From Stutzerimonas nosocomialis (GTDB taxonomy: Bacteria; Pseudomonadota; Gammaproteobacteria; Pseudomonadales; Pseudomonadaceae): 64,000 nucleotides of DNA. Numbering within the stretch: the first letter of the stretch is position 1; the number at the start of each line of letters is the position of its first letter. Shown here piece by piece: positions 1,871 through 26,739 of the stretch. Position numbers and translations under genes: made by a program. A model generated the notes under the pieces. It saw nothing but the letters and a program-made list of their open reading frames with translations. It ran no database searches and had not been told where the DNA came from. The DNA is taken from positions 124,001-188,000 of the forward strand of contig NZ_QLAE01000002.1 in assembly GCF_005876855.1 (NCBI RefSeq), written 5' to 3'.

Positions 1871-2051
1871 GATGGGTTCCTCAAGGTTGTCGGTGACTTC
1901 GGTGCCCATGGTGGCGGCCGAGCGCGCGCATGAGAAACGCAGAGGATCACTAGTGAATATCGACGCGATCGATCCGGTCATCGTCGTATCCGGGTGAGGG
2001 CGGGCCAGGCTCGCTACAATCGGCGGCTTCCATCGCTCCCAGGAAAACGGC

Positions 2052-4459: not shown

Positions 4460-4479
4460 CGTGCCGTGAAGGCTGCCGG

Positions 4480-5886
4480 TCAGTCCGGCAGGCGGAAGGT
4501 GATGAAGCTGGCGCGGCCCTGGCGCAGCACCCGCATCGACACCGACTGCTTGGACGGCAGCTTGTCGACGATGGCGCGGAAGGTCTTCGCCGAGTCGATC
4601 GCCTGGTTGTTCAGGTGGGTGATCACGTCGCCCGGACGCAGGCCGATTTCCACGGCCGGACCGTTGCTCACTTCGCGCACCACCACGCCGCCGCGCAGGT
4701 CGAAGGTCTTCTTCTGCTCCGGGCTCAGCTCGGCCACGGTGACCCCGAGGCGGTTGCTGCTCTGCTGGGCGCCACCCGGCGCACCGCCGCCGGCGACCAC
4801 TTCGTCGTCATCGGGCAGGGCGCCGATGGTGATGTTCAGCGTCTGGCGCTTGCCGTCGCGGACCACGGCGAACCGCGCCACGCTGCCGGGCTTGAGCGCG
4901 CCGACCAGGTGCGGCAGGTCGCTGGACATCTCGATCGACTTGCCGTCCATGCTCAGGATCACGTCGCCGACCTGCAGGCCGCCCTTGGCCGCCGGGCTGT
5001 CCTCGAGCAACTGCGCGACCAGCGCACCGGCCGGGCGATCCAGGCCGAAGGAGTCGGCCAGGTCCTTGTTCACTTCCTGGATCACCACGCCGAGCCAGCC
5101 GCGGCTGACCTTGCCCGTGGTGCGCAGCTGGTCGGCCACGTCCATCGCGACGTCGATCGGAATGGCGAACGACAGGCCCATGAAGCCACCGGAACGGGTG
5201 AAGATCTGGGAGTTGATGCCCACCACTTCGCCGTTCAGGTTGAACAGCGGGCCGCCGGAGTTGCCCGGGTTGATCGCCACGTCCGTCTGGATGAAGGGCA
5301 CGTAGCTTTCGCTTGGCAGGGTGCGCCCGGTGGCGCTGACGATGCCGGCGGTGACAGTGTGGTCGAAGCCGAACGGCGAACCGATCGCCACCACCCATTC
5401 ACCGGCCTTGAGCTGGTCGGACTTGCCGAGCTTGACCGTCGGCAGGTTGTTGCCCTCGATCTTCAGCAAGGCCACGTCGCTGCGCGGGTCGGCGCCGACC
5501 AGCTTGGCGGTCAGCTCGCTGCGATCGGGCAGGCGCACCATGATTTCGGAGGCATCGGCGACCACGTGGTTGTTGGTCAGCACGTAGCCGTCCTGGGAAA
5601 TGATGAAGCCCGAGCCCAGCGACTGGGCCTCGCGCTGGCGTTCCGGACGGTTGGGGATGCTGCGTTCGAAGAACTCGCGGAAACCCGGCGGCAACCCTTC
5701 CAGATCGGGCAGCTGCGCCGCGGGACCGCGTGCGGGCATCTTCTGCTTGGTGCTGATGTTGACCACCGCTGGCGACGCACTTTCGACCAGCGGTGTGAAG
5801 TCCGGCAGGTCGGCATAGGCCACGAGGGCCTGGCCGAGCATCACGACACCTGCCGTGACGGCCAGCAATTGCTTACGAAGTAACAT
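4480..5886 (-). CDS. mucD: periplasmic serine protease, MucD/DegP family (HtrA)
   Basis: A 468-residue HtrA protease with a signal peptide (cleavage expected after VAYA, about residue 25). The trypsin-like domain has the complete triad: His107 (TNNHVV), Asp137 (RSDVALL) and Ser210 (GNSGGPLF). Two PDZ domains follow at about residues 265-355 and 375-465. Members degrade or refold misfolded envelope proteins, and MucD restrains the AlgU alginate stress response in Pseudomonas. The start at 5886 has a GGGGAGA site; the frame continues upstream into Arg/Cys-rich sequence that is not exported. Oddity: in many Pseudomonas mucD is the last gene of algU-mucABCD, but here it stands alone between polB and metQ-like, so it may be DegP-like with its own promoter. 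Confidence 0.9.
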   Translation of the reverse strand: MLLRKQLLAVTAGVVMLGQALVAYADLPDFTPLVESASPAVVNISTKQKMPARGPAAQLPDLEGLPPGFREFFERSIPNRPERQREAQSLGSGFIISQDGYVLTNNHVVADASEIMVRLPDRSELTAKLVGADPRSDVALLKIEGNNLPTVKLGKSDQLKAGEWVVAIGSPFGFDHTVTAGIVSATGRTLPSESYVPFIQTDVAINPGNSGGPLFNLNGEVVGINSQIFTRSGGFMGLSFAIPIDVAMDVADQLRTTGKVSRGWLGVVIQEVNKDLADSFGLDRPAGALVAQLLEDSPAAKGGLQVGDVILSMDGKSIEMSSDLPHLVGALKPGSVARFAVVRDGKRQTLNITIGALPDDDEVVAGGGAPGGAQQSSNRLGVTVAELSPEQKKTFDLRGGVVVREVSNGPAVEIGLRPGDVITHLNNQAIDSAKTFRAIVDKLPSKQSVSMRVLRQGRASFITFRLPD

Positions 5887-10680: not shown

Positions 10681-10988
10681 GTAACCGGGTCACAGATATC
10701 GCTTGCCAGGTTCGGGAAAGACGGCTTATATCGCGCGCCGCTCCGTTCTGGAGCTGAAACCGGGCGCCTCCACCGTTCGTCGCCCGGCGCGCAAACACCC
10801 TAAAAGAACCCACACCAGGTGCCGATGCAATGCGGAGCCTGGTGCGTTCGACGGCGGCCGTCTGCGTTTCAGCCAGGTTTCGGATCGGCAATGGATGTCC
10901 GTGGCGGTTGAGCACTTCGAGTCGTGGCCCATGCCACGAAAGCCTTCAGTCGTCGCTTTTCTTCTTCGTAGTTATTGAGCAGTCCCTC
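10681..10988 (+). promoter_or_regulatory. leader / promoter region of the TPS locus
   Basis: About 310 bases with no convincing gene. An open frame continues upstream of the tpsA start, but it contains no export signal and shows Arg/Cys-rich shadow composition. I see no clear sigma-70 promoter, no perfect operator and no strong ribosome site immediately before the tpsA ATG (only GAGCA, about 7 bases upstream), so tpsA translation may start weakly or depend on leader structure. Confidence 0.3.
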
Positions 10989-13900
10989 ATGAATCATGTC
11001 TATCGCACGATCTGGAACCATGCCAAAGGCGTCTGGCAGGTAGTCGGAGAGCACACCACGCGCCAGGGCAAGACCAAATCGGCGAAGTCTGCGAAAGCGG
11101 CCCGTAGCGCCGGCATCGTGGCGATAGGCGCGCTGCTCGGCAGCCCCGCGCTGTACGCGCAGGGCATCGTGACGGACGGGCGGACGGCCACCAGCGTGAC
11201 GCAGACCGGCAACGTCACGGACGTCCACACCTCGACGATCAGGAACGGCAACGGCTTCAACTCCTTCTCCCGCTTCGACGTGGACAAGGGCGACGTGGCC
11301 AACCTGCACGTGCCCGACTCGGCCAAGGCGCTGATCAACATCGTTCGCGACCAGCGCAGCGAGATCAACGGCATCCTCAACGGTTACCAGAACGGCCAGA
11401 TCGGCGGCGACATCTACTTCGCCAACCCGCACGGCATGGTCGTGGGCGAATCCGGCGTGATCAACGTCGGCTCGCTGAGCGTGTCGACCCCGGATTCGGC
11501 CTTCCTCGAGCGCATGCTCGGTGCCGACGGGCAGATCAACGCCCAGGCGGTGGAGCAGCTCAAGGCCGGCAACGTCCCGCTGTCGGAAAGCGGCCTGGTG
11601 TCCATTCGTGGCCAGGTCAACGCCACCGGCGCCATCACCCTCACCGCGCAGGACGTCGGCATCGAGACTGGCGCGCAGCTCACCGCCGGCCGCCAGGCGC
11701 TGCCGCGCATCGAGCAGCTGGTGAACATCGGCGACCTGCAGAGCGGTGGCGCGCTGGTCGAGGCCAACGGCGAGATCGTCATCGTCGCCGGCAACGACGT
11801 GAAGGTCGGCGGCCAGGTGGTGGCCGATGGTGCCGCCGGGCATGCCGCGGGCGATATCGAGATTCGTGCCGGTCGCAACATCGACCTGGCGCAGACCGCG
11901 CGGGTCTCCGCGTCCGGACAGGGCGCCGGCTCCGACGGCGGCTCGGTGGTGATCAAGGCCAAGCAGCAGAGCAGCCTGGCCAAGGGTGGCGTGGTCGCGG
12001 CCAATGCCGGCGAAACTGGCGACGGCGGCTTCGTCGAGCTGTCGGCCGACAAGACCGTCACCTGGGGCGGCAGCCTGGAGGCCAGCGCCGGCAAGGGCGG
12101 CGCCGCCGGCCACGTGCTGATCGACCCGGAAGAGATCCTGGTCAGCCAGGACCAGCGCCTGGGCGGGACCAACTACACCCTGCAGGCCTCCAAGCGCATC
12201 GACCTCGCCGATGGCGTGATGATCTCCACCCGCGATATCGCCAACTACCAGAGCGCCAGCCAGACCGAGCACCGCGACGCGGTGTCCATCGGCGACTCCG
12301 GCAGCATCACCCTCGAAGCGCCGACCATCGCGCTGGGCGAGGGCGCCAAGCTCTACGCGCACACCAACACCGATGCGTTCAAGGCCGGCGACATCACCCT
12401 CAAGGCCCAGGCCGCCGAAGGAGCCATGCTCACCCCCGGCATCCAGGTCGGCGTGGGCAGCAACAAGGCCGAGATCCTCGTCGGCGCGGACAGCGAGCTT
12501 CGCGGCGGCCAGGTCACCCTGATCGCCGAAGCCTCCACCGCGCTGACCGACGCCCTCTCCAGCGATGCGCTGTACAACGGCGTGGACGCCCAGGGGCGCC
12601 CCATCGCCAAGGTGCTCTCCGACGATGAGCTGGAAGAGCAGAGCCAGATGCTGGCGGAAGCCGGCGTGACCGACCCCAACGCCGAGGACGACGGCTTCTT
12701 CGCCGGCGTGCTCGATAACCTGGCCAGCACCGGCCTGCTGGCCTCGGTACAGGTGCTCAAGGCCGAGGCGCGCGTCGACATCGGCGACCGCGTGACCCTC
12801 ATCGCCAGCGACGACGTGACCATCGCCGCCCATGCCGCCACCAATGCCCAGGCTGAAGTCGGCGAACTGCCGGTGGGCGCGGTGGTTTCGGTGACCCGCA
12901 GCGACGCCCAGCTCAACGTCGGGCAGAACGTGCGCATCGAGTCGCTCGGCGGCAGCGTCGAGCTCAAGAGCCAGTCCGACAGCACGGTGGAAACCAGCGT
13001 CGAGGCCGGCGCCCTGGAAGGCCTGCCGGTCACCCTGACGGCCAACGTGTCCCACGTGAAGGGCCGCGCGACCACCACCGTGGGCAACGGCAGCCTGATC
13101 AAGGCGGCCTTCGATGCCACGGTGAGCGCCGAGCAGGTGAAGGTGTTCGACGTCAGCGCCAGCGCCGGTGACACCGATGGCTCCATCGGCATCGCGGTGC
13201 TGGTGGCGCTGTCCGACCTGCAGGCGCGCAACGATTTCAACGGCACCCTGGAAGCCGGCCGCGACGCCAACCTGACGGCGATGGTCGACACCCAGTCCAA
13301 CCACCACGAAGCGGCGGTGCTGCTCGGCGACGAGAACAAGATCGTCTCCACCCTCGAGGAAAAGATCGGCGAAGCCGGCGAGGACCCGAAGGAGCTGCTG
13401 CAGGGCAAGGTCAGCGACGGCATCAAGGAGCTGATGAAGACCCTGCTTAAAAAAGCCGTGGAGGAAGAGAAGAAGAAGGAAGAGGGCGCCGGCGAGCAGC
13501 CCGCACCGACCAAGGGCTTCCTCGACGAGCTCGGCGCCGCCGGCGCCCTGGCCTACGTCAACCACGACAACCAGGCGCTGGTGAACGTCGGTGGCCAGGC
13601 CAAGGTCAAGGCCGGGCAGAACGCCAACCTCTCCGCCGAGGTCACCGACCTGCTGGATTCGCAGGTCTCGGCCACCATCTCCGACAGCAAGAACGCCGAG
13701 AAGCCGTTCGACTTCAGCACCGAAAGCACCGGCAAGAAGAACGGCGTCGGCGTCGCCATCCTGATCAGCGACCAGGACAACAGCGCCGTGCTGAGCGTGC
13801 GCCCGGGCGCCGAGCTCGATGCGCTGGAGGCCCTCGGCCTCAACGCCAAGGCCAGCCTGCCCTGGGTCGACCAGAGCCGCCTGTCGAACCTGATCAAGGC

Positions 13901-16900
13901 CTTCGACAGCGACAACCTCGGCGACTTCCTGGCCACCATCAACGAAGGCCAGAGCTTCAGCACCTGGGTCAACGCCGCCACCGCCGTGTCCGGCGAAGGC
14001 GCGAAGGACGACGGCACCACCCTGAGCGGCATGGTCGACATCAACAACGTCGGGCTGACCGCCAAGGTGGACGTCGCCGATGGCGTGAACGTCAACCAGG
14101 ACGCGGCCTACCGCGGCCAGGCACAGACCGTCGACGTCTCGGCACGCACCGAGTCGCAGATGATCAACGTCGCCGCCGACCCGATGCTGTTCAACAACGA
14201 AGGCGGCAAGAACGGCTTCGGCGCTGGCGTGATCGTCGGCCGCTACACCAATACCGCCGAGGCCACCCTCGGCGCGGTCAACCTGTACGCCAACGCGCTG
14301 AACGTCGAGGCGGTCACCGACGTCGACCTGCTCAACTACGCGGTCGGCGGTTCCAAGGGGGGCACCAATGCGCTGAGCGGCTCGGTGGCGGTCTCGACGC
14401 TGACCAACCTCACCCGCGCCGGCATCGACGACGGCGCCAACCTGCTGCTGGTGGCCACCCCGGACGTCGGCGGCGACCTGCGCGTCTCCGCCCGTGACGA
14501 GACCGACGGCCTGACCATCACCGGTGGCGTGGTGAGCTCCTCCAGCCGCGCCGCCGGCGTGGCCGCCGGGGTGCACGATTTCGACCGCACCACCGAAGCC
14601 TGGCTGGGCAGCCGCGACAGCGACAAGGCCCCGGGCCGCACGTCCGCCGACGGCGCGCTGGTGGTCGATGCCGGCAGCGCCGGCCGCCTCGGCAACTACG
14701 CGCTGTCGGTCGCCATGACCGCGCCGCCCGCGCCCAGCACTTCGGGCGCGGCGCAATCGCGCGAGGGCACCGGCGCCTTCGGCATCAACGTCTCCGGTTC
14801 GGCGGCGGTGAACCTGGTGGACAACCGCGTCTCGGCGCGCGTGGCCGACGATCTCGACGTCGCGGCCGACAGCGTCACCGTCAGCGCCCGCGACGACAGC
14901 GCCCAGCACGCCATCGCCGGCGGCGCTTCGGTGTCGCGCAACACCGGCAACGGCGTCGGCCTGGCCGGCGCCTACACCCAGAACACCATCAATGCCGAGG
15001 TGGAGGCCGAACTGGCCGCCAACGGCAGCGTCGACGCACGGCGCGTCGAGGTCACGGCCAGGAACGACGCCGATGCCCTGTCGATTTCCGCCGGCGTGTC
15101 CGCCAGCGCCTCGGCCTCCAGCTATCAGGTGGCCGGCTCGGTGAGCGTCAACGCCATCGACGCCACCACCCGTGCGCGCCTGGCCGACGGCAACCTCAGC
15201 GCCCGCGACGGCGTCACGGTGAGCGCCGACGACAGTTCGACCATCCACGCCGTGGCCGGCGCGGCCAGCTTCGGCGGCAAGGCCGGGGTCGGCGCGGGCC
15301 TGTCGATCAACGAGATCGGCGGCGCCACCGAGGCGCTGGTCGAGAACCTGCGCGGCCTGGACACCAACGGCGACCTGCAGGTGAGCGCCCACAGCGAAGC
15401 GGACCTGGTCTCCGTCGCCGCGGCCATGGGCTACTCCAACCGGTACGCCTTCGACGGCTCGGTGGCCATCAACCAGGTCGACCACGACACCACCGCCGCC
15501 GTGCGCGACAGCCGCAACCTGCTGGTCGGCGGCGCGCTGGCGGTGCAGGCCGGCAACGACAGCAGCATCTGGACCGCCTCCGGCTCGGCCGCCATCGGCA
15601 ACGACGGCGCGATGGGCGCGGCCTTCGGCTACAACACCGTCAGCGATCGGGTCGCAGCCGAGATCCTGAACAGCCAGGCCGACGCCGGCAGCATCCTGGT
15701 CGCCGCCGAGCAGAGCAGCGACATCAATGCGCTGGTCGCCGGCGGCGCCGTGGCCGCGCGTTCCTCCGCGGTGGCCGGTTCCATCGCCATCAACACCATC
15801 GACAACCAGGCCAGCGCCCGGGTGATCGACGCCGACCTCGACAGCGCCGGCACCCTGCGGGTGGATGCCCGCGACCATTCGCTGATCCGCAGCCTGACCG
15901 GTGCCCTGGCATTCGGCGGCAACGGCGCCGGCGTCGGCATCGCCGGTTCCTACAACGACATTTCCGGCCTGGTCCATGCCGCGGCCCTGGGCGGCAACCT
16001 GAAGGCCGGCGATCTGCTGCGCGTCAGCGCGCTGCGCGACCAGCAGCTGCAGTCCCTGGCCGCCGGCGTCGGTGCGGGCAACGCCACCGGCGTCGCCGGT
16101 TCGGTCGCGGTGAACAGGGTCGGCGGCGCCACCCTCGCCGAGATCGCTCAGGGCGCGGTGCTCGACAGCGACGGCAGCCTGCTGCTCGCCGCGCGCTCGG
16201 ACAGCGACATCGAAACCGTCGCCGGCGCCCTGGGCGTCGGCCTGTCCAGCGTCGGCCTGTCCGGCGCGGTGGCGGTGAACCAGCTCGAAGGCAGCACCGC
16301 CGCGCGGGTCACCGGCGGCGCCAACCTGCACGCCAAGGGCCTCGGCAGCGGCGTCGCGGTGGACAACGGCGCGCTGAGCGGCAACACCGGCAGCGACCTG
16401 CGCGACCGCACCCTGACCCAGAACGTAAGCGGCATCGCGGTGATCGCCAGCAGCACCGACGAGGTGGACACCGTGGCCGCCAGCGTCGGCGTCGGTGGCA
16501 ACACCGGCGTGGCCGGTGCCGTCACCACCAACCTGGTGGGCGGCAGCACCCTGGCCGAGGTCAGCGGCGGCGCCCGCCTGAGCAGCGAGGGCGCGGCCCA
16601 GGTCGGCGCCTACCACCACACCCGCGTCACCACCGGCAACGGTGCCGGCGCGGGTGGCGGCACCGCCGGCGTCGGCGCTTCCGTGACCACCAACATTCTC
16701 GACCACGACACCCAGGCCCTGGTCAACGGCGCGAGCATCGCCGCCGCCGGCGCACTGGGCCTGAACGCGCGCGCGACCCACGACCTCAACGCCGTGGTGG
16801 TGGGCGCCGCCATCGGCGGCACCGCCGGCGTCAACGGCTCGGTGGCCGTCACCACCCTCGATGGCAGCGTGCGCAGCAAGGTCACCGACGGCGTGCTGAC

Positions 16901-19900
16901 CAGCACCGGTGGCGGCGTGCAGATCGCCGCCGATGCCGACAACGACCTCGACATCGTCGCCGGCGGCATCGCCGGTGGTGGCGTGGCCGGCGTGGGCGCC
17001 ACGGTGATCGTCAGCACCCTGCAGCAGAGCACCGAGGCCTCTACCGCCGGTGCCACGCGCATCGACGCCAGCGGGCTGACCGCGATCGACGCCAGCGCCT
17101 CGCAGGACGTGACCACCGTCGGCTTCACCGGAGCCGGCGGCGGTACCGCCGGCGTCGCCGGTACCGTCAACGTGCTGGTCGCCAACGGCAGCACCCTCGC
17201 GGCCGTGGGCGCCGGCAGCCGGATCAACGAAAACCTCGGCGGCGCGCAGCAGGACGTGCGCCTGCACGCCTCCGACGCGCTGAGCACCACCAGCGTGCTG
17301 GGTACCGCGGGTGTCGGCGGCGTCGCCGGCGTCGGCGCGGGTGCCGACGTGCAGGTGGTGCGCAGCGGCGCGGTGGCCAGCGTGGGCGACGGCGCCTACG
17401 TCGGCGCCGACCGCGACATCCTCATCGCCGCCGAGAACCGTCGCGACATCGACTCCGTGTCGGTGGCCGCCGCCGGTGGCGGCTACGTCGGCGCCGGTGC
17501 CGGCGTGTCGGTGGTCAGTGTCGCCGCGGGGGCCTCGGCCGAGGCGACCAAGAGCCTCGACAGCAGCCTGGCCAGCGCGCAGGCCGCCGCCCGCAACTCC
17601 GGCCTCAAGGGCCAGATGGGCACCCAGTTCTCCCGTGCCGGCGAACTGCAGGGCGAGATCAACGCCCGCCAGCAGGCCGTCAGCCCGAACGACACCTTTC
17701 TCTCCGCGCCGGACGCGACCCGCTATTCGGCGGCGGCGCGGGTCGGCAACGCGGTCATCGACGCCGGCCGCAACGTGCAGGTCAGCGCCAGCAACCGTAC
17801 CGATGCCCTCAGCGAGGCGGCCGGCGTGGCCGCTGGCCTGGCCGGCGCCGGTGGCGGCGTGTCGGTGATCAACGTCGGCGACCGCAGCCTGGCCGAGCTG
17901 GGCGGCACCCTGCTGGCCGGCGGCAACGTCTCGATCAGCGCCGACGACGGCCAGAACGGCGTCACCCAGGCCCATGCGCAGGCCGGTGGCGGCGGGGCGC
18001 TGGGCCTCGGCGCCGCGGTCGCGGTCAGCCAGAAGTCCAGTCAGGTCACCGCGCGGCTGCTCGACGGTGCTTCGGTCACCGCCGGCGGCACCCTCGAGGT
18101 CGCGGCCAATCTCGACCATGCGCTCAAGGCGCAGACGGTCGGCACCAGCCTCGGCGGGCTGGCGATCGGCGCCTCCATCGCCACCGCCAGCACCACCGGA
18201 CAGGCCGAGGCCCTGATGGGCCGGAACGTGCAGGTGCGTGCCGGCAACATCGCCGTCGACGCCAATGCCCGTTCCAGCAACAACGTGGACGCCGTCGGCG
18301 TCAGCGGCGGCATCCTGCTGGCCGGCAACGCGGTGGTCGCCACCGCGGTGGACGACACCCGGGCCCGCGCCTGGGTCGGCGACGGCAGCCTGCTGCTGGC
18401 GCAGAACGCCATCGGCATCCGCGCCAGCACCGACCCGATGGCCCGCGCCTTCGCCATCGGCGCGGCGGTGGGCAAGGCCGCCATCGGCGCCAGCGTCGCG
18501 GTGGCCGCGGTGAACAACCAGGTGCAGGCCGGTGCCGGTGCGGTGAACCTCGCCGGTGCTTCGCTGGAAGTGGACGCCAGCGCCGAGCGCAGCCGCGCGC
18601 AGAGCGCCGAGGCCCGCGCCATCGGCGCCGCCGGCGGTGCGCTGCTGGGCGTTAACGCCACCGTGGCCAGCGCCGACCTCGACACCCTGGTGCAGGCCGA
18701 GCTCGGCCAGGGCACCCGACTGGCGATCGGCGGCGACGCCAGTGTCAGGGCCAGCGACGCCACCCGGATCAAGACCGACGCCACCGGCCTGGCCGTGGGC
18801 GGTGCCCTGGCCATCGGCGCCAACGTCGGCAACGCCGACATCAACGCCAGCCAGCTGGTGCGCTTCGGCGCCACCGGCCTGGTGGGCGGCACCCTCGACC
18901 TCTCGGCGACCGGCAGCAACGGCATCGCCGGCGAGGCGGTGGCAGGCAGCGGCGGCGTGATCGCCGGCAGTGCCTCGGTCCTGAATCTCGACGCCCGCAG
19001 TGCCACCACCGTGGACGTGCTGGGCAGCACCGACGTGCTCAGCGGCCGTACCACCGTGCTCGCCGAGCACCGCCTCGACTATTCGGCCGACAGCAACTCG
19101 CTGCAGGCGGCGATGGTCGGCGCCTCGGGCACCTTCATCGACCTCGACCTGGCGGCCGATACCCGCGTGCTGATCCGCGACGGCGCCAGCCTGGCGGCGG
19201 TCGAGGGGCTGGACGTCGAGGCGCACAGCATCACCCAGGGCAGCGCGCTGGCCTATTCCGGCTCCGGCGGCGTGCTCAACGGCAGTGCCGTGCTGGTCGA
19301 TAACAGCATCCGCGACGACAGCCGCATCCTGGTCGGCAACGGCGTGAACCTGGCCACCGTCGGCAGCCCGCTGGTGACCGACAAGGGCCACCTGCGGATG
19401 ACCGCGCACAACACCCTGCGCGCCTCCGACACCGGCCGGCTGTCCGCCGGCGGCGCCATCGCCGCGCCCTACGCGGGCACCGAGATGGACGTCGACGTGA
19501 CCAACCAGGTGGTGTTCGGCAACGACGTCTCGCTCAGCAGCAGCGGCCTGCTGCAGGTCGGCGCCTACAGCGATACCCGGGCCACCACCCAGGCCCGCGT
19601 GGACGTCTACGGCCTGGTCGGCGCCGGCGGCGGTTCGTCGAAGATCGACCTGGTCGCCAACCAGCTGGTGCGCTTCGGCGCCAACGCCGACCTGCTCGCC
19701 TACGGCAACATCGGCCTGCGCGCCGGGCAGAGCGCCGACGGCAACCTGAGCAACGACATCCGTGCCGTGGCCAACACCCTGGTGATGAACAACACGCTGA
19801 TCCCGGTGACCGCGGTGCTCGACGCCGACGCCATCGCCAGCACCACCAACGACCTGCTGTTCGGCAGCAACAACCGGGTCCGCTCGGTGCGCAGCATCGA

Positions 19901-22900
19901 CCTGGTCGCCACCAACGGCAGCGTCACCGCCGACGGCGGCGGCGTGGGCAAGAACCCGTACCTGTCGCTGTTCTCCAGCGAGCAGACCACCCGCTCCAGC
20001 CGGATCGACCGCTCGGCCACGCTGAACCTGGCCAATACCCACCTGGTCGCCGGCGTCTCCAACCGCCAGGAACTCTACTGGGACGGCACCACGCTGCGTA
20101 CCGTCTCGGCCCTGGGCGACATCGGCGCGCAGTACAAGGCCGCCGGCAGCACCGACGCGTTCCGCCCGCTGGCCGAGATCGACGCCACCCTGGCCGCGCT
20201 GAACCAGCAGCGCGCCACGCTGAACCCGGCGTCGGCCGATTACGCCCGCCTCGGCGAGCAGATCGACCTGTACACCCAGATGCGCGCCAGCACCGCCCAG
20301 GCCCTGGGCGCCGGCGCCAACGGCAGCACCAGCGTGGATACCCTGGTGATCAGCGACATCGTCGCCGGCGCCGGCGACATCAACGTCAACGCCGAGCGCA
20401 TCCAGCAGTCCGGCGCCAGGCTGGCCGCCTATGGCGCGCCGACGGTGATCATCCACAACAGTTCGGACGACTACCTGGTCACCAACGGCATCCTGGTGTC
20501 GGCCGCCGGCAGCGGCAGAATCCTCTCCAGTGGTGCGGCCAAGGTGGCCAACAGCGGCGCCAGCCTGACCGAGGTCGGCCGTTCGCAGTCGGACTACTAC
20601 GATGCCAACCAGCGCCCGGACGTGCCCTCGATCGTCATCGAGAACAGCTACGACACCAGCCTGCCGGGTAACACCGGCAAGGCGCCGGGCATCCTGGTGC
20701 TGGGCGACATCGAGAACCTCAAGGGCAGCACCTCGCTGAGCAACGTCTCGGGCAACGTCTCGCAGTTCGCCACCATCGAGAGCTACCAGCTGAGCATGAA
20801 CGTGCCCAATGGCGACCTGTTCGTGAACCTGCCGGGACGCAACTGGAGCCTGGCCTCGGTGCAGGCCGAATGGGCGAACGTCATCGACGGCCTGAGCCCC
20901 TCGTCCCTCAGCGGTCGCAGCGTGCCCAACTCGATTGCCGAGTTCGCCGCCAACGTGGTCTACAACGCCAACGGGCAGTACGACCGCTTCGGCCTGAACG
21001 ACTACCTGATCCGCCAGTACGGCCGGGGCAACGGACATGACCAGCACATCATCGTCGGCAACGCGATCGACCAGTATTGGGAAACGTCCGACGATTACAC
21101 GGCCAACCGGGCGTTCCTGAACGGGGGCAATTACATCTACACGGCCAACGTGTCGGCCAACGACCATGACTTCTGGTCGGGCAAGACCGGTGCCCGTCAG
21201 TGGTCCTATACCGCGCTCAACGCCTACAACACCGCCAACAGTGCGGCGCTGTCCCAGGCCGATACCTCCGGTTCGGCCCGGAGCGCGCTGCGTGTCGGCG
21301 GCGCCCTGGCGATCAACGCCCGCAACATCAACGTCAACGCCGGCATCGAAGTGGGCAGCCGGACCGACTGGTCGCTGGATCTGGGCAGCGCCACTGCCGC
21401 GGAAATCGCCGGGATCGGCGCCACCAGCGGCCTCGTACGTCTGAACAACCTGAATGCCATCGCCGACGGCAACGGTCTGGACGACGTGCCGCAGGTCTAC
21501 TGGGACGTCGACAACCAGCGCATCCAGGTGCAGCGCATCAAGGCCTCCGGCGGCGGCTCGGTGTCGCTGACCGGCAACATCATCAACACCAACACCCTGG
21601 GCAACATCACCGTCAACTCCGGTTACGGCGACGTCCAGATCAACAACAGCACCGGCCATGGCATGCAGCTGTCGGACATCGACCTGGGCAACGGTGGGCA
21701 GAGCGTGGTGCGCATCACCGACACCCTCAAGTCGTGGGGCGACGGTCGCGCGCAGACCTGGTGGTACGTCAACCAGGCCGGCCAGGACAGCGTCTCGGTG
21801 TACAACGACGCCAACGGCGCCACCGGCCTGGCCAGCGCCGGCCTGAGCAGCGTCATCGGTCGCGAGTTCAGCTACAACCCGCAGACCGGCGCACGCTACG
21901 AGTGGACCCACGACTACCACATCACCCGTGATTACGCCGGTGCCACCACCGTGCGCGGCGACGGTCCCGTCGAGCCCGGTCCCTGGACCTCGGAAATCGC
22001 CACCGCGGACGGCAACGCCTACCGGGTGAGCGACGGCACCGTGGTGGTCCGTGCGCCGACCGGCAACGGCCAGGCCTTCATGCAGTGGGCCGATGCCGAC
22101 ATCGACTACACCACGGTCTATTCGAACGGTGCGATCAGCAATGGCTGGGGCGGTTTCGACAACAGCACCCAGTTCAACCTGGCCACCGACATCAAGCTGA
22201 CCGTCACCAACAGCGTCAAGGCCGACCACGCCATCCCGATCCGCTTCGTCGGCAACAGCGAGTCGCGCCTGAAGGTCGATTCGAACGCCGACGTGCTGAT
22301 CGGCGGCGACATCCGCAACGATGTCGGCACCAGCCGCTTCGACGTCAATGGCGGCGCATTGCTGCAGGCCGGCGGCTCGCTGCAGGGCCTGGACCTGCAG
22401 CTCAACGCCACGTCCGGCATCGGCAGTGCCGACCAGGCGCTGAACATCATCGACTCGCGCGTGACGGGAGCCTCGGTGAGCGCCAGCAGCCAGGGCGACA
22501 TCTTCCTGGCCAGCAGCGGCGACTTCTACGCCAAGGCGATCCAGGCCTCGGGCGACGTCACCGTCAGGGCCAAGGGTGGCATCTACCAGCACGCCGATGC
22601 GGCGGGTGCGTCGATCTCCGGCGACGTGCTCAACCTGCACTCGGGCTCCGGCAGCTCGATCGGCGGCGTGAACGCGCCGCTGATCACCCAGAGCAACGAG
22701 ATCAACGCCTCGGCGCCCGGCAACGTCACCCTGACCCAGGCGGTCGGCAACATGAACGTCGGCTACATCGAGTCGACCCTGGGCAGCGTCGAACTGAACA
22801 CCCCCGGCGGCCAGATTCTCGGCGCGGCACCGAAGGCGGAAGACTACGACGCCCAGCTGCAGGACAAGATCGCCACCTGGCAGGACATGGGCGTCACCGA

Positions 22901-25091
22901 CGCCAACCATGCCGACAGCACCATCAACGGCTACGAGAACCTGGTGGAGCGCTACTACGGCGACTACTGGACCATCCGCGAGCTGGCCAACAACCCCGAC
23001 GGCAGCTTCAGCCTCACCGCCACCGGGATGGACCGCTTCCGCGATCAGGTGGCCGCCAGCCTGGGCCGCGCGCCGACCAATGCGGAAGTCAACGCCGCGG
23101 TCAAGGCGCGCTACCTGGAGGCCAGGGCCTTCCTGGTCAGCGCCCCGGGCGTCGACCAGGGCCTGCTGACCACCTACAGCGACGGCTTCCAGTACAGCCT
23201 GGATACCGGCTCGGAGCAGTACGCGCAGATGACCCATGGCGCGGTCTGGGACAAGAGCATGCTCGGCACGGTGATCAACGCCGGCGCCGCAGCGGGCGAA
23301 CGGCCGTCCACCGGCGCGCTGGCCAACGTCTCGGCCACCCAGGGCGCGATCCGCCTGAACAACGACCCGAACCAGGCGCTGCCGGAGTCGGAGATGCTGG
23401 TGTTCACCCTGCAGGCCAACGGCACCTTCCAGCCGACGGTGACCCAGCTGTCCTCGTCGGAGGGCAACAGCTACTCGGCGAGCCAGCTGCTGGCCTTCCT
23501 GTCCCAGGCCAAGCCGGGGACCATGGAGGCCCAGCAGGTCGACGGCAACACTGTGCGCATCACGCTCAAGCCGCGCTACGACCTGGCGGTGGAGGCGGCG
23601 GAGCCGGTGGTCATCAACGCCAAGGGCGACTACCACGTGGGCACCTCGAAGGACGTGATCCTCAAGGACATCACCGTGGGCGGCACCCTGTACGTCTATG
23701 CCGGGCGCGACGTGATCAACCAGACCGCCGCTGGCGTGGCCGGTGCGGTCACCGGCGGGCTGTACATCGACGCCGGTCGCAACATCGGCTCGCCGGACAA
23801 CCCGATCCAGGTCACCAACGACGGCACCAACCCGGTGACCGTGTACCGCCTGGTGGCACCGGGCACCGCCAACGTGGTGGTGATCAACGGCGACGTGGTG
23901 ATCGGCAAGATCGACGTCCAGGGCGAGACCAACCTGGTGGCCAACGCCGGCAACTTCCACTCGCTGGGCGACCACGCCACCTTCGACGGTGGCCTGGTCA
24001 ACCTGCGTGCGGTGGACGGCGACGACAAGACCTCCGGTTACATCGGCACCGACGCCAACCCGTTCAAGGTGGTGCAGAAGCGTGGCGCGCTCGGCCTGTA
24101 CGGCCTCGGCGCCAACGTGGTGGCCATGCAGAACGACCTGGTGATGGCGGGCAGCGTGCTCGACGGCCGTGTCGGCCTGACGTCCGCGCAGGGCGTCATC
24201 CGCATGGACAGCCCCAGTGCGGTGATCCGCACCACCGACGAGGCGCTGGGCCAGGTGAATCTGGTCGCCGCCACCGGCATCGGCGAAACCGAGGGCGCGG
24301 TCCGCCTGGACACCGGTCGCTTCAACGCGCAGACGCCGGTCGGCGACGTGCGCCTGCACCTGCACCGCGAAGCCAGCGCCGAGCGCGTGCACGCGCTGAC
24401 CGGCTCGGCCTACCTCGTCGGCGACGGTGACGGCGTGCTCGCCAGCACCGACCTGGACCTGGCCGACGTGCGGGTGGCGAAGGACCTGGACCTGCGTGCG
24501 CAGACCCTGCGCGCCAAGGTCACCCAGACCCTGCAGGACACCCCGCTGCGTGTCTGGGCCACCGACCAGGGCGGCGCGGTCGCCGACCGGGTCGAGCTGC
24601 AGGTCGCCGCCGCGCCGCACGTGCGCGTCGAGCGACTCGCCGCGCGCCTGGCGGACGTCCGCACCGACGCCCATCGCGCCAACGTGGTGAGCGGCCACAT
24701 CGGCGAGGAAATGAACCTGACCACCCGCCACGTCAGTGCGCTGATGGACAACACCACGCCGGCCCTGCGTTACGGCCACGACTTCCAGTACTACATCCCG
24801 AAGAAGGACTTCAGCCTGGATCTCGAGGCCCGCGGCGCCACCGGCTCGCGCGCGCCGATGTGGTTCGACGTGTCGCGCGGCGTGTTCACCCGCAACATGG
24901 TCACCAGCGGCCACGCGACCTTCGACCTGGCCCGTCCGCAGTTCAGCCAGGACTACCGGTCCACCGGCAGGAATGGCCTGCTGCAGGCCTTCGCGGCCGC
25001 CTACCCGGTCATCCCTGCGCTGCAGCTGCCGGGCACCCTTTCCAACGCGGCCATCGCCGTGAACACCGAGATCGATGATGAAACTCTGTAA
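10989..25091 (+). CDS. giant two-partner secretion exoprotein (TpsA; filamentous-haemagglutinin / LktA-like adhesin), 4,700 aa
   Basis: The start at 10989 is set by the extended signal peptide region (MNHVYRTIWNHAKGVWQVV), a hallmark of very large TpsA proteins, followed by a hydrophobic core ending LYA-QG at about residue 57. Residues ~58-250 form the TPS secretion domain; the usual NPNG motif is NPHG (146-149). Next comes a beta-helical part, a Lys/Glu-rich insert (~786-843), then ~25 repeats of 53-56 residues (~1265-2670) of the type VAGSVAVN...TxAxV...L.V.A. The repeats are broken by a helical insert (~2183-2240). An aromatic-rich region (~3270-3700), a helical insert (~3955-4105) and a unique C-terminus ending EIDDETL follow. 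I found no cysteine anywhere, so the Cys-hook anchor of HMW1/CdrA is absent. TpsB overlaps the 3' end by 17 bases. Family role: secretion through TpsB, then adhesion or aggregation; target unknown. Confidence 0.92.
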   Translation: MNHVYRTIWNHAKGVWQVVGEHTTRQGKTKSAKSAKAARSAGIVAIGALLGSPALYAQGIVTDGRTATSVTQTGNVTDVHTSTIRNGNGFNSFSRFDVDKGDVANLHVPDSAKALINIVRDQRSEINGILNGYQNGQIGGDIYFANPHGMVVGESGVINVGSLSVSTPDSAFLERMLGADGQINAQAVEQLKAGNVPLSESGLVSIRGQVNATGAITLTAQDVGIETGAQLTAGRQALPRIEQLVNIGDLQSGGALVEANGEIVIVAGNDVKVGGQVVADGAAGHAAGDIEIRAGRNIDLAQTARVSASGQGAGSDGGSVVIKAKQQSSLAKGGVVAANAGETGDGGFVELSADKTVTWGGSLEASAGKGGAAGHVLIDPEEILVSQDQRLGGTNYTLQASKRIDLADGVMISTRDIANYQSASQTEHRDAVSIGDSGSITLEAPTIALGEGAKLYAHTNTDAFKAGDITLKAQAAEGAMLTPGIQVGVGSNKAEILVGADSELRGGQVTLIAEASTALTDALSSDALYNGVDAQGRPIAKVLSDDELEEQSQMLAEAGVTDPNAEDDGFFAGVLDNLASTGLLASVQVLKAEARVDIGDRVTLIASDDVTIAAHAATNAQAEVGELPVGAVVSVTRSDAQLNVGQNVRIESLGGSVELKSQSDSTVETSVEAGALEGLPVTLTANVSHVKGRATTTVGNGSLIKAAFDATVSAEQVKVFDVSASAGDTDGSIGIAVLVALSDLQARNDFNGTLEAGRDANLTAMVDTQSNHHEAAVLLGDENKIVSTLEEKIGEAGEDPKELLQGKVSDGIKELMKTLLKKAVEEEKKKEEGAGEQPAPTKGFLDELGAAGALAYVNHDNQALVNVGGQAKVKAGQNANLSAEVTDLLDSQVSATISDSKNAEKPFDFSTESTGKKNGVGVAILISDQDNSAVLSVRPGAELDALEALGLNAKASLPWVDQSRLSNLIKAFDSDNLGDFLATINEGQSFSTWVNAATAVSGEGAKDDGTTLSGMVDINNVGLTAKVDVADGVNVNQDAAYRGQAQTVDVSARTESQMINVAADPMLFNNEGGKNGFGAGVIVGRYTNTAEATLGAVNLYANALNVEAVTDVDLLNYAVGGSKGGTNALSGSVAVSTLTNLTRAGIDDGANLLLVATPDVGGDLRVSARDETDGLTITGGVVSSSSRAAGVAAGVHDFDRTTEAWLGSRDSDKAPGRTSADGALVVDAGSAGRLGNYALSVAMTAPPAPSTSGAAQSREGTGAFGINVSGSAAVNLVDNRVSARVADDLDVAADSVTVSARDDSAQHAIAGGASVSRNTGNGVGLAGAYTQNTINAEVEAELAANGSVDARRVEVTARNDADALSISAGVSASASASSYQVAGSVSVNAIDATTRARLADGNLSARDGVTVSADDSSTIHAVAGAASFGGKAGVGAGLSINEIGGATEALVENLRGLDTNGDLQVSAHSEADLVSVAAAMGYSNRYAFDGSVAINQVDHDTTAAVRDSRNLLVGGALAVQAGNDSSIWTASGSAAIGNDGAMGAAFGYNTVSDRVAAEILNSQADAGSILVAAEQSSDINALVAGGAVAARSSAVAGSIAINTIDNQASARVIDADLDSAGTLRVDARDHSLIRSLTGALAFGGNGAGVGIAGSYNDISGLVHAAALGGNLKAGDLLRVSALRDQQLQSLAAGVGAGNATGVAGSVAVNRVGGATLAEIAQGAVLDSDGSLLLAARSDSDIETVAGALGVGLSSVGLSGAVAVNQLEGSTAARVTGGANLHAKGLGSGVAVDNGALSGNTGSDLRDRTLTQNVSGIAVIASSTDEVDTVAASVGVGGNTGVAGAVTTNLVGGSTLAEVSGGARLSSEGAAQVGAYHHTRVTTGNGAGAGGGTAGVGASVTTNILDHDTQALVNGASIAAAGALGLNARATHDLNAVVVGAAIGGTAGVNGSVAVTTLDGSVRSKVTDGVLTSTGGGVQIAADADNDLDIVAGGIAGGGVAGVGATVIVSTLQQSTEASTAGATRIDASGLTAIDASASQDVTTVGFTGAGGGTAGVAGTVNVLVANGSTLAAVGAGSRINENLGGAQQDVRLHASDALSTTSVLGTAGVGGVAGVGAGADVQVVRSGAVASVGDGAYVGADRDILIAAENRRDIDSVSVAAAGGGYVGAGAGVSVVSVAAGASAEATKSLDSSLASAQAAARNSGLKGQMGTQFSRAGELQGEINARQQAVSPNDTFLSAPDATRYSAAARVGNAVIDAGRNVQVSASNRTDALSEAAGVAAGLAGAGGGVSVINVGDRSLAELGGTLLAGGNVSISADDGQNGVTQAHAQAGGGGALGLGAAVAVSQKSSQVTARLLDGASVTAGGTLEVAANLDHALKAQTVGTSLGGLAIGASIATASTTGQAEALMGRNVQVRAGNIAVDANARSSNNVDAVGVSGGILLAGNAVVATAVDDTRARAWVGDGSLLLAQNAIGIRASTDPMARAFAIGAAVGKAAIGASVAVAAVNNQVQAGAGAVNLAGASLEVDASAERSRAQSAEARAIGAAGGALLGVNATVASADLDTLVQAELGQGTRLAIGGDASVRASDATRIKTDATGLAVGGALAIGANVGNADINASQLVRFGATGLVGGTLDLSATGSNGIAGEAVAGSGGVIAGSASVLNLDARSATTVDVLGSTDVLSGRTTVLAEHRLDYSADSNSLQAAMVGASGTFIDLDLAADTRVLIRDGASLAAVEGLDVEAHSITQGSALAYSGSGGVLNGSAVLVDNSIRDDSRILVGNGVNLATVGSPLVTDKGHLRMTAHNTLRASDTGRLSAGGAIAAPYAGTEMDVDVTNQVVFGNDVSLSSSGLLQVGAYSDTRATTQARVDVYGLVGAGGGSSKIDLVANQLVRFGANADLLAYGNIGLRAGQSADGNLSNDIRAVANTLVMNNTLIPVTAVLDADAIASTTNDLLFGSNNRVRSVRSIDLVATNGSVTADGGGVGKNPYLSLFSSEQTTRSSRIDRSATLNLANTHLVAGVSNRQELYWDGTTLRTVSALGDIGAQYKAAGSTDAFRPLAEIDATLAALNQQRATLNPASADYARLGEQIDLYTQMRASTAQALGAGANGSTSVDTLVISDIVAGAGDINVNAERIQQSGARLAAYGAPTVIIHNSSDDYLVTNGILVSAAGSGRILSSGAAKVANSGASLTEVGRSQSDYYDANQRPDVPSIVIENSYDTSLPGNTGKAPGILVLGDIENLKGSTSLSNVSGNVSQFATIESYQLSMNVPNGDLFVNLPGRNWSLASVQAEWANVIDGLSPSSLSGRSVPNSIAEFAANVVYNANGQYDRFGLNDYLIRQYGRGNGHDQHIIVGNAIDQYWETSDDYTANRAFLNGGNYIYTANVSANDHDFWSGKTGARQWSYTALNAYNTANSAALSQADTSGSARSALRVGGALAINARNINVNAGIEVGSRTDWSLDLGSATAAEIAGIGATSGLVRLNNLNAIADGNGLDDVPQVYWDVDNQRIQVQRIKASGGGSVSLTGNIINTNTLGNITVNSGYGDVQINNSTGHGMQLSDIDLGNGGQSVVRITDTLKSWGDGRAQTWWYVNQAGQDSVSVYNDANGATGLASAGLSSVIGREFSYNPQTGARYEWTHDYHITRDYAGATTVRGDGPVEPGPWTSEIATADGNAYRVSDGTVVVRAPTGNGQAFMQWADADIDYTTVYSNGAISNGWGGFDNSTQFNLATDIKLTVTNSVKADHAIPIRFVGNSESRLKVDSNADVLIGGDIRNDVGTSRFDVNGGALLQAGGSLQGLDLQLNATSGIGSADQALNIIDSRVTGASVSASSQGDIFLASSGDFYAKAIQASGDVTVRAKGGIYQHADAAGASISGDVLNLHSGSGSSIGGVNAPLITQSNEINASAPGNVTLTQAVGNMNVGYIESTLGSVELNTPGGQILGAAPKAEDYDAQLQDKIATWQDMGVTDANHADSTINGYENLVERYYGDYWTIRELANNPDGSFSLTATGMDRFRDQVAASLGRAPTNAEVNAAVKARYLEARAFLVSAPGVDQGLLTTYSDGFQYSLDTGSEQYAQMTHGAVWDKSMLGTVINAGAAAGERPSTGALANVSATQGAIRLNNDPNQALPESEMLVFTLQANGTFQPTVTQLSSSEGNSYSASQLLAFLSQAKPGTMEAQQVDGNTVRITLKPRYDLAVEAAEPVVINAKGDYHVGTSKDVILKDITVGGTLYVYAGRDVINQTAAGVAGAVTGGLYIDAGRNIGSPDNPIQVTNDGTNPVTVYRLVAPGTANVVVINGDVVIGKIDVQGETNLVANAGNFHSLGDHATFDGGLVNLRAVDGDDKTSGYIGTDANPFKVVQKRGALGLYGLGANVVAMQNDLVMAGSVLDGRVGLTSAQGVIRMDSPSAVIRTTDEALGQVNLVAATGIGETEGAVRLDTGRFNAQTPVGDVRLHLHREASAERVHALTGSAYLVGDGDGVLASTDLDLADVRVAKDLDLRAQTLRAKVTQTLQDTPLRVWATDQGGAVADRVELQVAAAPHVRVERLAARLADVRTDAHRANVVSGHIGEEMNLTTRHVSALMDNTTPALRYGHDFQYYIPKKDFSLDLEARGATGSRAPMWFDVSRGVFTRNMVTSGHATFDLARPQFSQDYRSTGRNGLLQAFAAAYPVIPALQLPGTLSNAAIAVNTEIDDETL
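14780..19000 (+). repeat. coding repeat array within tpsA (about 25 units of 53-56 codons)
   Basis: Successive units share a framework of a Gly/Ala-rich VAGSVAVN-type strand, a T-x-A-x-V strand, a G-x-L-x-V-x-A strand and an AGA-x3-GG turn. Measured spacings between equivalent positions are 55 (VAGSVAVN to LSGAVAVN near 16,090-16,260) and 53 residues (VGASV to VNGSV near 16,670-16,830). Units are diverged in protein sequence, so this is an old array rather than a recent DNA expansion. The limits given are approximate. Confidence 0.75.
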
Positions 25092-26739
25092 GCGTCTCAA
25101 CGCCGGCGACCTGCGGGTCGCCAGCGCCTGTCTCCCGCTGCTGCTGGGCGCGGCCGCATTGCCGTCCGTATCTCTGGCCCAGGCGGTTCCACCGGGCGCG
25201 CAGCCCGGTGCGATCAGCTCCGAGCTGCTGCGCCAGCCGCAGCGCATCGAGCGCATGGAAGCCCTGCCGCAGGGCGAGGCGCCGGTGCTGGACGTGCCGC
25301 TGGTGGGCGACCAGCAGCTGCCGGACAACCCCGGCGTGGCCTTCACCCTCGAATCGGTGGTGTTCAGCGAGACGGCCATCCTCTCGCGCGAAGAGCTCGA
25401 TGCCGTGGTGCAGCCCTACCTGGCGCGCACCGTCGGCTTCGCCGAGCTGCAGCAGGTCATCGTCGCGGTCAACCGGCTCTATGACGACAAGGGCTACGTC
25501 ACCGCCCGGGCGATCCTGCCGCCGCAGCGCATCGAAGGCGGTCGCGTGCGGGTGCAGCTGGTCGAGGGACGCGTCGGCGAGCTGGTGCTCGAAGGCGCCA
25601 CCTACATGAAGCCCGAGTACATCCGCCAGCGGGTGGGCATCGAGTCCGGCGAGCTGATCGAACCGCGCCGCCTGGAAGAGGAACTGTCGCGCTTCAACCG
25701 CCTGAGCGCCGGCGCGCTGTCCGCCTCGCTGCAGCCGGGCAAGGGCTATGGCCTCACCGATGTCTACCTCAACGTCACCGAGCCGCCGCGCAACAGCCTC
25801 GACCTGTTCGTCAACAACCACGGCTACGAATCCACCGGCGAGGAAACCGGCGGGGTCATGTACCGCCACTATGGCGCGCTGGGTGCCGACGACGTGTTCT
25901 CCTTCTTCGGCGCCGGCTCGCGGGGCTCGGGCGTCGGCAGCCTGTCCTACGACGCGCCCTTCAACGCCTATGGCGGACGCATCGGCGCGCGCCTGGGCAA
26001 GAGTTCGGCGCGGGTCGTTTACGGCCCGTTCCGCGATCTCGATTCCAGGAGCGATTCGGAAAACGGCTCGGTGTTCCTCAGTCATCCGCTGTGGAGCAAC
26101 CGCGACTGGCTGCTCACGGGTCAGCTGACCGTCGGCGAGCAGCGTACCGAGAACCGCGTGGCCGGCGTGTTCCTCAACGAAACCCGGGTCAAGTCGACCC
26201 AGGGCGACCTGACCGCGCTGTATCTGGTGCCCGGCCGCTCGGCACGCCTCGGCCTGGGGTACCAGGAAGCCCGCAGCGAGCTGGAGGGTACCCCGGAGCG
26301 CGAAACCTTCGACCTCTGGTCCGGCTACTGGCAGCTCTACCAGGCGCTCGGCGCCGACTGGTACCTGAACGGCGCCGGCGCCTGGCAGTACTCGCGCAAG
26401 GAAGGCGTGCCGTCCAGCCAGCTGTTCCAGATCGGCGGTGCTTCGACCGTGCGCGGCTACCGCCAGGGCGAACTGGCCGGCGACGGCGGCGCCTACGCCA
26501 ACTTCCAGGCCAACTATCGCGTCACCCAGGCGCTCACCGGCTTCGGTTTCTACGACTTCGGCAAGATCGACTCCTCGTTCCGCCAGCCCGAAACCCTCGA
26601 CAGCGTCGGGGCCGGGTTCAACTGGCAAGTGAACCGCCGCCTCGCCACCGAGGTGTCGATGGGCGTTCCGCTCAGAAACGTCCGCAATGACCAGGACGAC
26701 GTCTACCTGAACGTCCAGCTGGTACTCAAGGCGCTCTGA
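25075..26739 (+). CDS. TpsB outer-membrane transporter (FhaC/ShlB/HecB family) for the giant exoprotein
   Basis: A 554-residue Omp85-superfamily two-partner secretion pore. A signal peptide ends SLAQA at about residue 37. Residues ~89-163 are the ShlB-type POTRA domain with the characteristic VNRLYDDKGYVTARAILPPQ segment; a second POTRA follows at about 165-240, then the beta-barrel. The conserved VRGY motif of the L6 loop is at residues 459-462 (Arg460). POTRA domains bind the TPS domain of the partner and the barrel exports it. The ATG at 25075 lies inside the end of tpsA (17-base overlap, two adjacent ATG codons), implying translational coupling. The order tpsA-tpsB is the reverse of many fhaC-fhaB type loci but is as in cdrAB. 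Confidence 0.93.
   Translation: MMKLCKRLNAGDLRVASACLPLLLGAAALPSVSLAQAVPPGAQPGAISSELLRQPQRIERMEALPQGEAPVLDVPLVGDQQLPDNPGVAFTLESVVFSETAILSREELDAVVQPYLARTVGFAELQQVIVAVNRLYDDKGYVTARAILPPQRIEGGRVRVQLVEGRVGELVLEGATYMKPEYIRQRVGIESGELIEPRRLEEELSRFNRLSAGALSASLQPGKGYGLTDVYLNVTEPPRNSLDLFVNNHGYESTGEETGGVMYRHYGALGADDVFSFFGAGSRGSGVGSLSYDAPFNAYGGRIGARLGKSSARVVYGPFRDLDSRSDSENGSVFLSHPLWSNRDWLLTGQLTVGEQRTENRVAGVFLNETRVKSTQGDLTALYLVPGRSARLGLGYQEARSELEGTPERETFDLWSGYWQLYQALGADWYLNGAGAWQYSRKEGVPSSQLFQIGGASTVRGYRQGELAGDGGAYANFQANYRVTQALTGFGFYDFGKIDSSFRQPETLDSVGAGFNWQVNRRLATEVSMGVPLRNVRNDQDDVYLNVQLVLKAL

What the first reader, a model, noticed from the sequence alone, without database searches (positions are those of the whole stretch)
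10989..25091. A 4,700-residue two-partner-secreted protein with no cysteine
Reading the whole translation, I found no Cys. The best-studied self-anchoring TpsA proteins (HMW1, CdrA) stay on the cell through a C-terminal Cys-hook. This protein is larger, has an intact secretion signal and TpsB partner, and ends in a Cys-free tail (EIDDETL). It must either be released or be retained by a different anchor, possibly a folded C-terminal domain that stops in the TpsB pore.
Basis: partly seen in the sequence, partly recalled or inferred. Interest (0 to 1): 0.7.

Follow-up and report, generated by a model that had tools for sequence, protein, structure and literature searches.

The report
Cysteine-free giant secreted adhesin, ordinary
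This is a very large bacterial surface protein that really has no cysteine, but proteins of its kind have very few anyway, and its relatives end in a shared, so far unmodelled C-terminal domain rather than in the cysteine hook known from other such proteins.

Summary
In detail: window 10989-25091 encodes a 4,700-residue TpsA with 0 Cys, followed by tpsB. It is a LktA-family filamentous adhesin (NF012204, E 1.5e-52). Zero Cys is striking against nine genes of the window (about 46 expected) but not against its class: TpsA proteins fetched here hold about 0.11% Cys, and 6 of 52 complete non-Lkt TpsA are Cys-free. At the family's pair rate the chance of none is about 0.09. Inside the family, only the window's own clade is Cys-free (4 of 25 long members, 0 of 20 outside it). 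A Cys hook is missing across the family, Cys-bearing members included: 2 of 28 C-termini have any Cys in the last 300 residues. The tail EIDDETL is poorly conserved and overlaps the tpsB start. Found instead: a conserved C-terminal module (residues about 4476-4660) without a Pfam or NCBIfam model, present in the same 6 of 369 class genomes as NF012204. TpsA held without a hook are already in print. Ordinary family member, one new lead.

The parts
10989..25091 (+). tpsA, LktA-family filamentous adhesin, 4,700 aa, no Cys
10989..11129 (+). extended signal peptide region (ESPR, residues 1-47)
   Evidence: PF13018, E 1.3e-14
11217..11672 (+). TPS domain (NF012204, residues 77-228)
   Evidence: E 1.5e-52
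15768..15917 (+). best of 11 LktA_tand_53 repeat stretches (residues 1594-1643)
   Evidence: NF012206
24414..24968 (+). C-terminal module shared by the LktA family (residues 4476-4660); T4579, F4608 and V4638 identical in 23 of 23 aligned members
24969..25088 (+). poorly conserved tail (residues 4661-4700) ending EIDDETL
25075..25091 (+). 17-base overlap of the tpsA end with the tpsB start (14 if the second ATG is used)
25075..26739 (+). tpsB, outer-membrane transporter, 554 aa
   Evidence: PF08479 and PF03865; nearest solved relative by sequence CdiB 6wim

Best explanation
An ordinary tpsA-tpsB operon for a giant LktA-family, probably beta-helical, filamentous adhesin. By knowledge of the pathway it crosses the inner membrane through Sec, is recognised by TpsB through its TPS domain and is threaded out unfolded. 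It has no Cys because proteins of this route carry few, in this family as close pairs, and this orthologue clade has lost or never gained them. It is not held by a Cys hook, and neither, as far as sampled, is the rest of its family. It ends in a conserved C-terminal module followed by a fast-changing tail whose last bases also start tpsB. My guess for the module, at a bit under even odds, is that it ends translocation, as a stable fold that either caps the rod outside or halts at TpsB without a covalent lock. Shown here: gene anatomy, Cys statistics, the module and its distribution, the overlap. Inferred: beta-helix, topology, adhesion, retention.
For: Family. Cys poverty: 48 Cys in 43,500 residues (8 Lkt proteins with a stop in the stretch, L124 with an N run among them) and 123 in 112,333 (52 others). 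Close pairs: 116 of 116 Cys in 20 long family members outside the window clade lie within 15 residues of another. No hook in the family: Cys in the last 300 residues in 2 of 28 C-termini (L121, L122, a vicinal CC). Module: the profile matches 7 of 7 intact complete Lkt proteins (all of them rows of the profile) and, not in the profile, L148, L149 and L151 at E 2.2e-55, 7.2e-50 and 1.2e-68; it matches 0 of 52 complete other TpsA at E 0.001. A profile built without the window clade finds the window at E 8.3e-26. The same 6 of 369 class genomes carry NF012204 over its cut-off and the module. tpsB overlap. Print: low Cys content, Cys a few residues apart (PMC8151025, passages).
Against: Within the family Cys-freeness is confined to the window's clade: 0 of 20 long members outside it are Cys-free, and one orthologue (L148) has a single unpaired Cys. 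A profile built from three window-clade rows alone finds only close orthologues and L151 (E 1.7e-9), none of the 7 complete Lkt proteins. Four of the six co-occurring genomes were in the search alignment; in the other two (G205, G486) module and TPS domain lie on different contigs. L185 matches the alignment (E 1.1e-13) but gave no match to the module profile. Between close orthologues the module is no more constrained than the passenger, and the window clade has a 15-residue insertion and a changed VPNF stretch there.
Confidence: 0.85

Rival explanations
1. Non-covalent C-terminal anchor: the module folds in the periplasm or in the pore and is too large or too tightly bound to pass TpsB, so the fibre stays on the cell.
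For: A conserved C-terminal module throughout the sampled family, which lacks a hook; in 13 of 16 further relatives 57-67 residues follow the module; TpsA held without a Cys hook are in print.
Against: No structure, no localisation data; a cap of the rod would be conserved too; constraint within the clade is not unusual.
Confidence: 0.3
2. Release: the whole protein passes TpsB and is shed; the module is the distal or proximal cap of the beta-helix or a folding nucleus.
For: No hook and no LapG; the weakly conserved tail shows no anchoring signal.
Against: Lack of a hook does not mean release: ExlA and FhaB are the published counter-examples.
Confidence: 0.4
3. Hairpin topology as described for FHA: the N-terminal TPS domain stays with TpsB and the C-terminal end lies outside.
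For: A published model for FHA (PMC3297439 passages; PMC7616799 passages); nothing in the sequence excludes it.
Against: Not tested here; other work favours the N-terminus leaving first (PMC5422565 passage).
Confidence: 0.2
4. Annotation artefact: translation starts at 10830 and the protein does contain Cys.
For: The frame is open to an ATG at 10830 with 3 Cys in the extension.
Against: ESPR matches from the ATG at 10989; two orthologues contain the same start; those Cys would lie before the signal peptide, not at the C-terminus.
Confidence: 0.03

Closest known systems
Leukotoxin LktA-family filamentous adhesins (NCBIfam NF012204, NF012206)
   Same: TPS domain and tandem repeats over the curated cut-offs; same C-terminal module as relatives fetched here
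   Different: The 20 long relatives outside the orthologue clade hold 2-12 Cys each; this clade holds none or one. The Fusobacterium namesake was not fetched or compared.
HMW1 and CdrA (Cys-hook TpsA)
   Same: TpsA with its own TpsB
   Different: No C-terminal Cys; no LapG in the genome
ExlA of Pseudomonas aeruginosa
   Same: Pseudomonad TpsA with one Cys, in the signal peptide; no hook; reported at the membrane (PMC8472254, passages)
   Different: 172 kDa pore-forming toxin with another C-terminal domain; sequences not compared here
FhaB of Bordetella
   Same: Long beta-helical TpsA described as joined by a latch across the pore to a C-terminal part (PMC13232309, Introduction)
   Different: FhaB has a C-terminal part of about 1,240 residues with its own CT domain; sequences not compared here

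Membership tests
LktA-family filamentous adhesin (TpsA) | NF012204 TPS domain over the curated cut-off | tested here: met
   177.5 bits, cut-off 60
LktA-family filamentous adhesin (TpsA) | LktA_tand_53 repeats over the cut-off | tested here: met
   215.5 bits, cut-off 50, 11 stretches
LktA-family filamentous adhesin (TpsA) | adjacent TpsB with POTRA and FhaC-type barrel | tested here: met
LktA-family filamentous adhesin (TpsA) | leukotoxic activity of the namesake | not testable with these tools
   the name says what members are annotated as; no functional data
Cys-hook TpsA (HMW1/CdrA type) | C-terminal Cys pair forming a disulfide | tested here: not met
   0 Cys
Cys-hook TpsA (HMW1/CdrA type) | LapG protease in the genome (CdrA only) | tested here: not met
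   PF06035, 0 matches in G000
CdiA (contact-dependent inhibition) | a known CdiA C-terminal domain | tested here: not met
   Pfam gives only ESPR, NCBIfam only LktA and haemagglutinin models at E 0.001
FhaB-type retention | large C-terminal part held at the pore | not tested
   no comparison with FhaB and no localisation data

The most novel reading that the evidence does not exclude
LktA-family TpsA proteins carry a C-terminal domain, not yet modelled in Pfam or NCBIfam, that serves as a cysteine-independent stop or anchor in or under the TpsB pore: another way of keeping a two-partner-secreted fibre on the cell.
Probability: 0.25. Interest if true: 0.55.

Novelty: new member of a known kind. 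Interest (0 to 1): 0.25.

Why it matters
The Cys count itself changes little: it fits what reviews state for type V proteins. What may matter is the shared C-terminal module. Whether the C-terminus of giant TpsA proteins is released, held or left as a cap is not settled, and a delimited module with near-invariant positions makes this testable across a whole family.

Tried and rejected
Considered and rejected: (1) EIDDETL as a signal: the last 50 residues are 47, 47, 43 and 24% identical to L007, L008, L148 and L149 and the end overlaps the tpsB start. The overlap is not general: L185 and L186 show no start within tpsA, L187 none at all, and L070 gave no line. (2) LapG-type release: the window has AAAG and TAAG at 600 and 454 residues from the end; six close-orthologue rows (L007-L009, L147-L149) have no such motif in the last 700, the distant L150 and L151 have one each, and the genome has no LapG. 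The motif pattern is recalled. (3) CdiA-type end: no model. (4) The antisense frame as a gene: both full-length orthologues carry codons that interrupt it, 4 TCA or 2 CTA. (5) dN/dS by region: nothing special. (6) Solved structures: none for the module or the TPS domain. (7) Tandem DNA repeats: short ones only. (8) Structure prediction: not available.

Sampling and dropped rows: the census took 75 of the 128 distinct places listed (counts), picked by hand by frame length; short frames and several very long ones were left out. Cys were counted from the domain match onward. Of 75, 9 are Lkt (8 with a stop in the stretch) and 66 others (52 with a stop). In one search L124 was left out of the Lkt set. 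skips the first 120 residues in its Cys count, one search does so for frames over 3,000 residues. One search left out five loci (L173, L176, L185, L186, L187). L009 and L147 come from contigs of the same length, as do L071 and L150, and are probably the same genomes; L124 and L176 lie on one contig and are probably pieces of one gene.

Full report
Observation. The frame at window 10989-25091 encodes 4,700 residues and no Cys. It carries an extended signal peptide region (PF13018, E 1.3e-14), the TPS domain of the leukotoxin-LktA-family filamentous adhesins (NF012204, E 1.5e-52), 11 LktA_tand_53 repeat stretches and a weaker general haemagglutinin N-terminal match. tpsB follows, 554 aa, with POTRA_2 and the ShlB barrel; its nearest solved relative by sequence is CdiB (6wim, E 5.7e-20). 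The genome is probably of the Pseudomonadaceae: a genome of the same family, G040, has a contig of 36,136 bases, the length of Pseudomonas alcaligenes contig BATO01000063.1 (inference). The genome holds one other match over the TIGR01901 cut-off, a frame of 2,855 residues with 12 Cys in close pairs.

Is the absence of Cys remarkable? Nine likely genes of the window have 31 Cys in 3,142 residues, which predicts about 46 in 4,700, so against ordinary genes it is far from chance. Against its class it is not. From two family searches (369 class genomes; 398 phylum genomes) I took 75 of the 128 distinct places listed, picked by hand by frame length. Of those with a stop in the stretch, 8 Lkt proteins hold 48 Cys in 43,500 residues (0 of 8 Cys-free) and 52 others hold 123 in 112,333 (6 of 52 Cys-free; 5 of 23 among those of 2,000 residues or more). 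In 7 intact Lkt proteins 46 of 46 Cys lie within 15 residues of another; in the 52 others 80 of 123 do. In 20 family members of at least 2,900 residues outside the window's clade it is 116 of 116, a rate that predicts 2.4 pairs in the window protein and a chance of none of 0.09. None of these 20 is Cys-free, so within the family the trait is confined to the window's clade as far as sampled: L007 and L008 (related genomes) full length and Cys-free, L149 (Oxalicibacterium MAG) Cys-free over the 3,636 residues held, L148 (Pseudomonas putida 31800) with one Cys in 3,635. Reviews state that type V secreted proteins have few Cys and that these lie a few residues apart (PMC8151025, passages; few Cys in autotransporters: PMC3297439, passages).

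Is the lack of a hook remarkable? Two or more Cys in the last 100 residues occur in 10 of 13 complete non-Lkt TpsA under 1,000 residues, 4 of 16 of 1,000-2,000, 4 of 11 of 2,000-3,500 and 3 of 12 above. In the LktA family 2 of 28 C-termini, L121 and L122, have Cys in the last 300 residues, as a vicinal CC. So large TpsA of this sample mostly lack a hook, and this family lacks it whether or not it has Cys elsewhere. [quoted passage not shown] ExlA, whose one Cys is in the signal peptide, is reported at the membrane (PMC8472254, passages). [quoted passage not shown]

The tail. The last 50 residues are 47, 47, 43 and 24% identical to L007, L008, L148 and L149, against 64-83% for residues 4561-4650 and lower than any 200-residue bin with data. 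The tpsA end overlaps the tpsB start by 17 bases in the window (14 if the second ATG is used), 14 in L007 and L008, 11 in L148 and L149. The DDE of EIDDETL is the codon run GAT GAT GAA, which carries ATGATG in the tpsB frame. In 13 of 13 other family loci looked at, a GTG (10) or TTG (3) lies at -13 inside the end of tpsA, with ATG at -1 in 5 of them; which start is used is not proven. In L185, L186 and L187 no such overlap was seen. I read the acidic end of the window protein as a by-product of the overlap (inference).

The C-terminal module. Aligned C-termini of the family show a shared stretch. In 23 aligned members T4579, F4608 and V4638 (window numbering) are identical in all, and L4502, L4577, N4588 and Q4600 in 22. 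A profile of it matches the 7 intact complete Lkt proteins, all of which are rows of the profile, and also L148, L149 and L151, which are not. It matches none of the 66 other TpsA at E 0.001 (52 of these complete; best L125, E 2.5). The truncated L072 and the broken L124 are not matched. Built without the window clade it finds the window at E 8.3e-26; built from three window-clade rows alone it finds only close orthologues and L151 (E 1.7e-9). Of 16 further family loci 15 match it and L185 does not; in 13 of the 16 the match ends 57-67 residues before the stop. In 369 class genomes the alignment matches 6, the same 6 that have NF012204 over its cut-off. Four of these contributed rows; G205 and G486 are independent, but there module and TPS domain lie on different contigs. 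In 198 family genomes 17 match, against 5 found with the window's own C-terminus. Of 11 members scanned, Pfam and NCBIfam give only single stray matches (E 0.012-0.029), and no solved structure matches by sequence. The window clade differs from the rest by a 15-residue insertion and a changed VPNF stretch. Between close orthologues the module is no more constrained than the passenger.

How it works. By knowledge of the pathway: Sec export, recognition of the TPS domain by TpsB, threading and folding outside into a long rod. Whether the C-terminus stays in, plugs or follows is not known. The module is a natural candidate for whatever ends the process, but a cap fits the data as well as an anchor.

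Novelty. Paper searches with terms for TpsA, Cys, anchor and hook, the LktA-family name and ExlA/FhaB/CdiA listed no title on a C-terminal module of LktA-family TpsA. The lists were capped and most subscription journals are not in that library, so this is a weak negative. The finding as given is a new member of a known kind.

Noticed in passing
window 10869-25379, minus strand: An antisense frame of 4,836 codons is open opposite tpsA, because tpsA uses no TTA, CTA or TCA codon in 4,700 (about 9 expected at the rate of nine other genes). Both full-length orthologues carry such codons, so it looks like codon bias.
   Followed up: yes
L154 1740-10304 (+), own genome, contig C11: A second TpsA-like frame of 2,855 residues with 12 Cys in close pairs, the last pair 16-21 residues from its end. 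Its end looks CDI-like by eye only.
   Followed up: partly
L007, L008, L148, L149: Orthologues with 67-77% identity are scattered (3 of 197 other family genomes with strong matches, plus a MAG named Oxalicibacterium), which may mean horizontal transfer.
   Followed up: no
ends of tpsA in L010, L172-L175, L177-L184: 13 of 13 loci looked at end in W-x-I/L/F with a GTG or TTG at -13, possibly the tpsB start read in the tpsA frame; the real tpsB start is unproven.
   Followed up: partly
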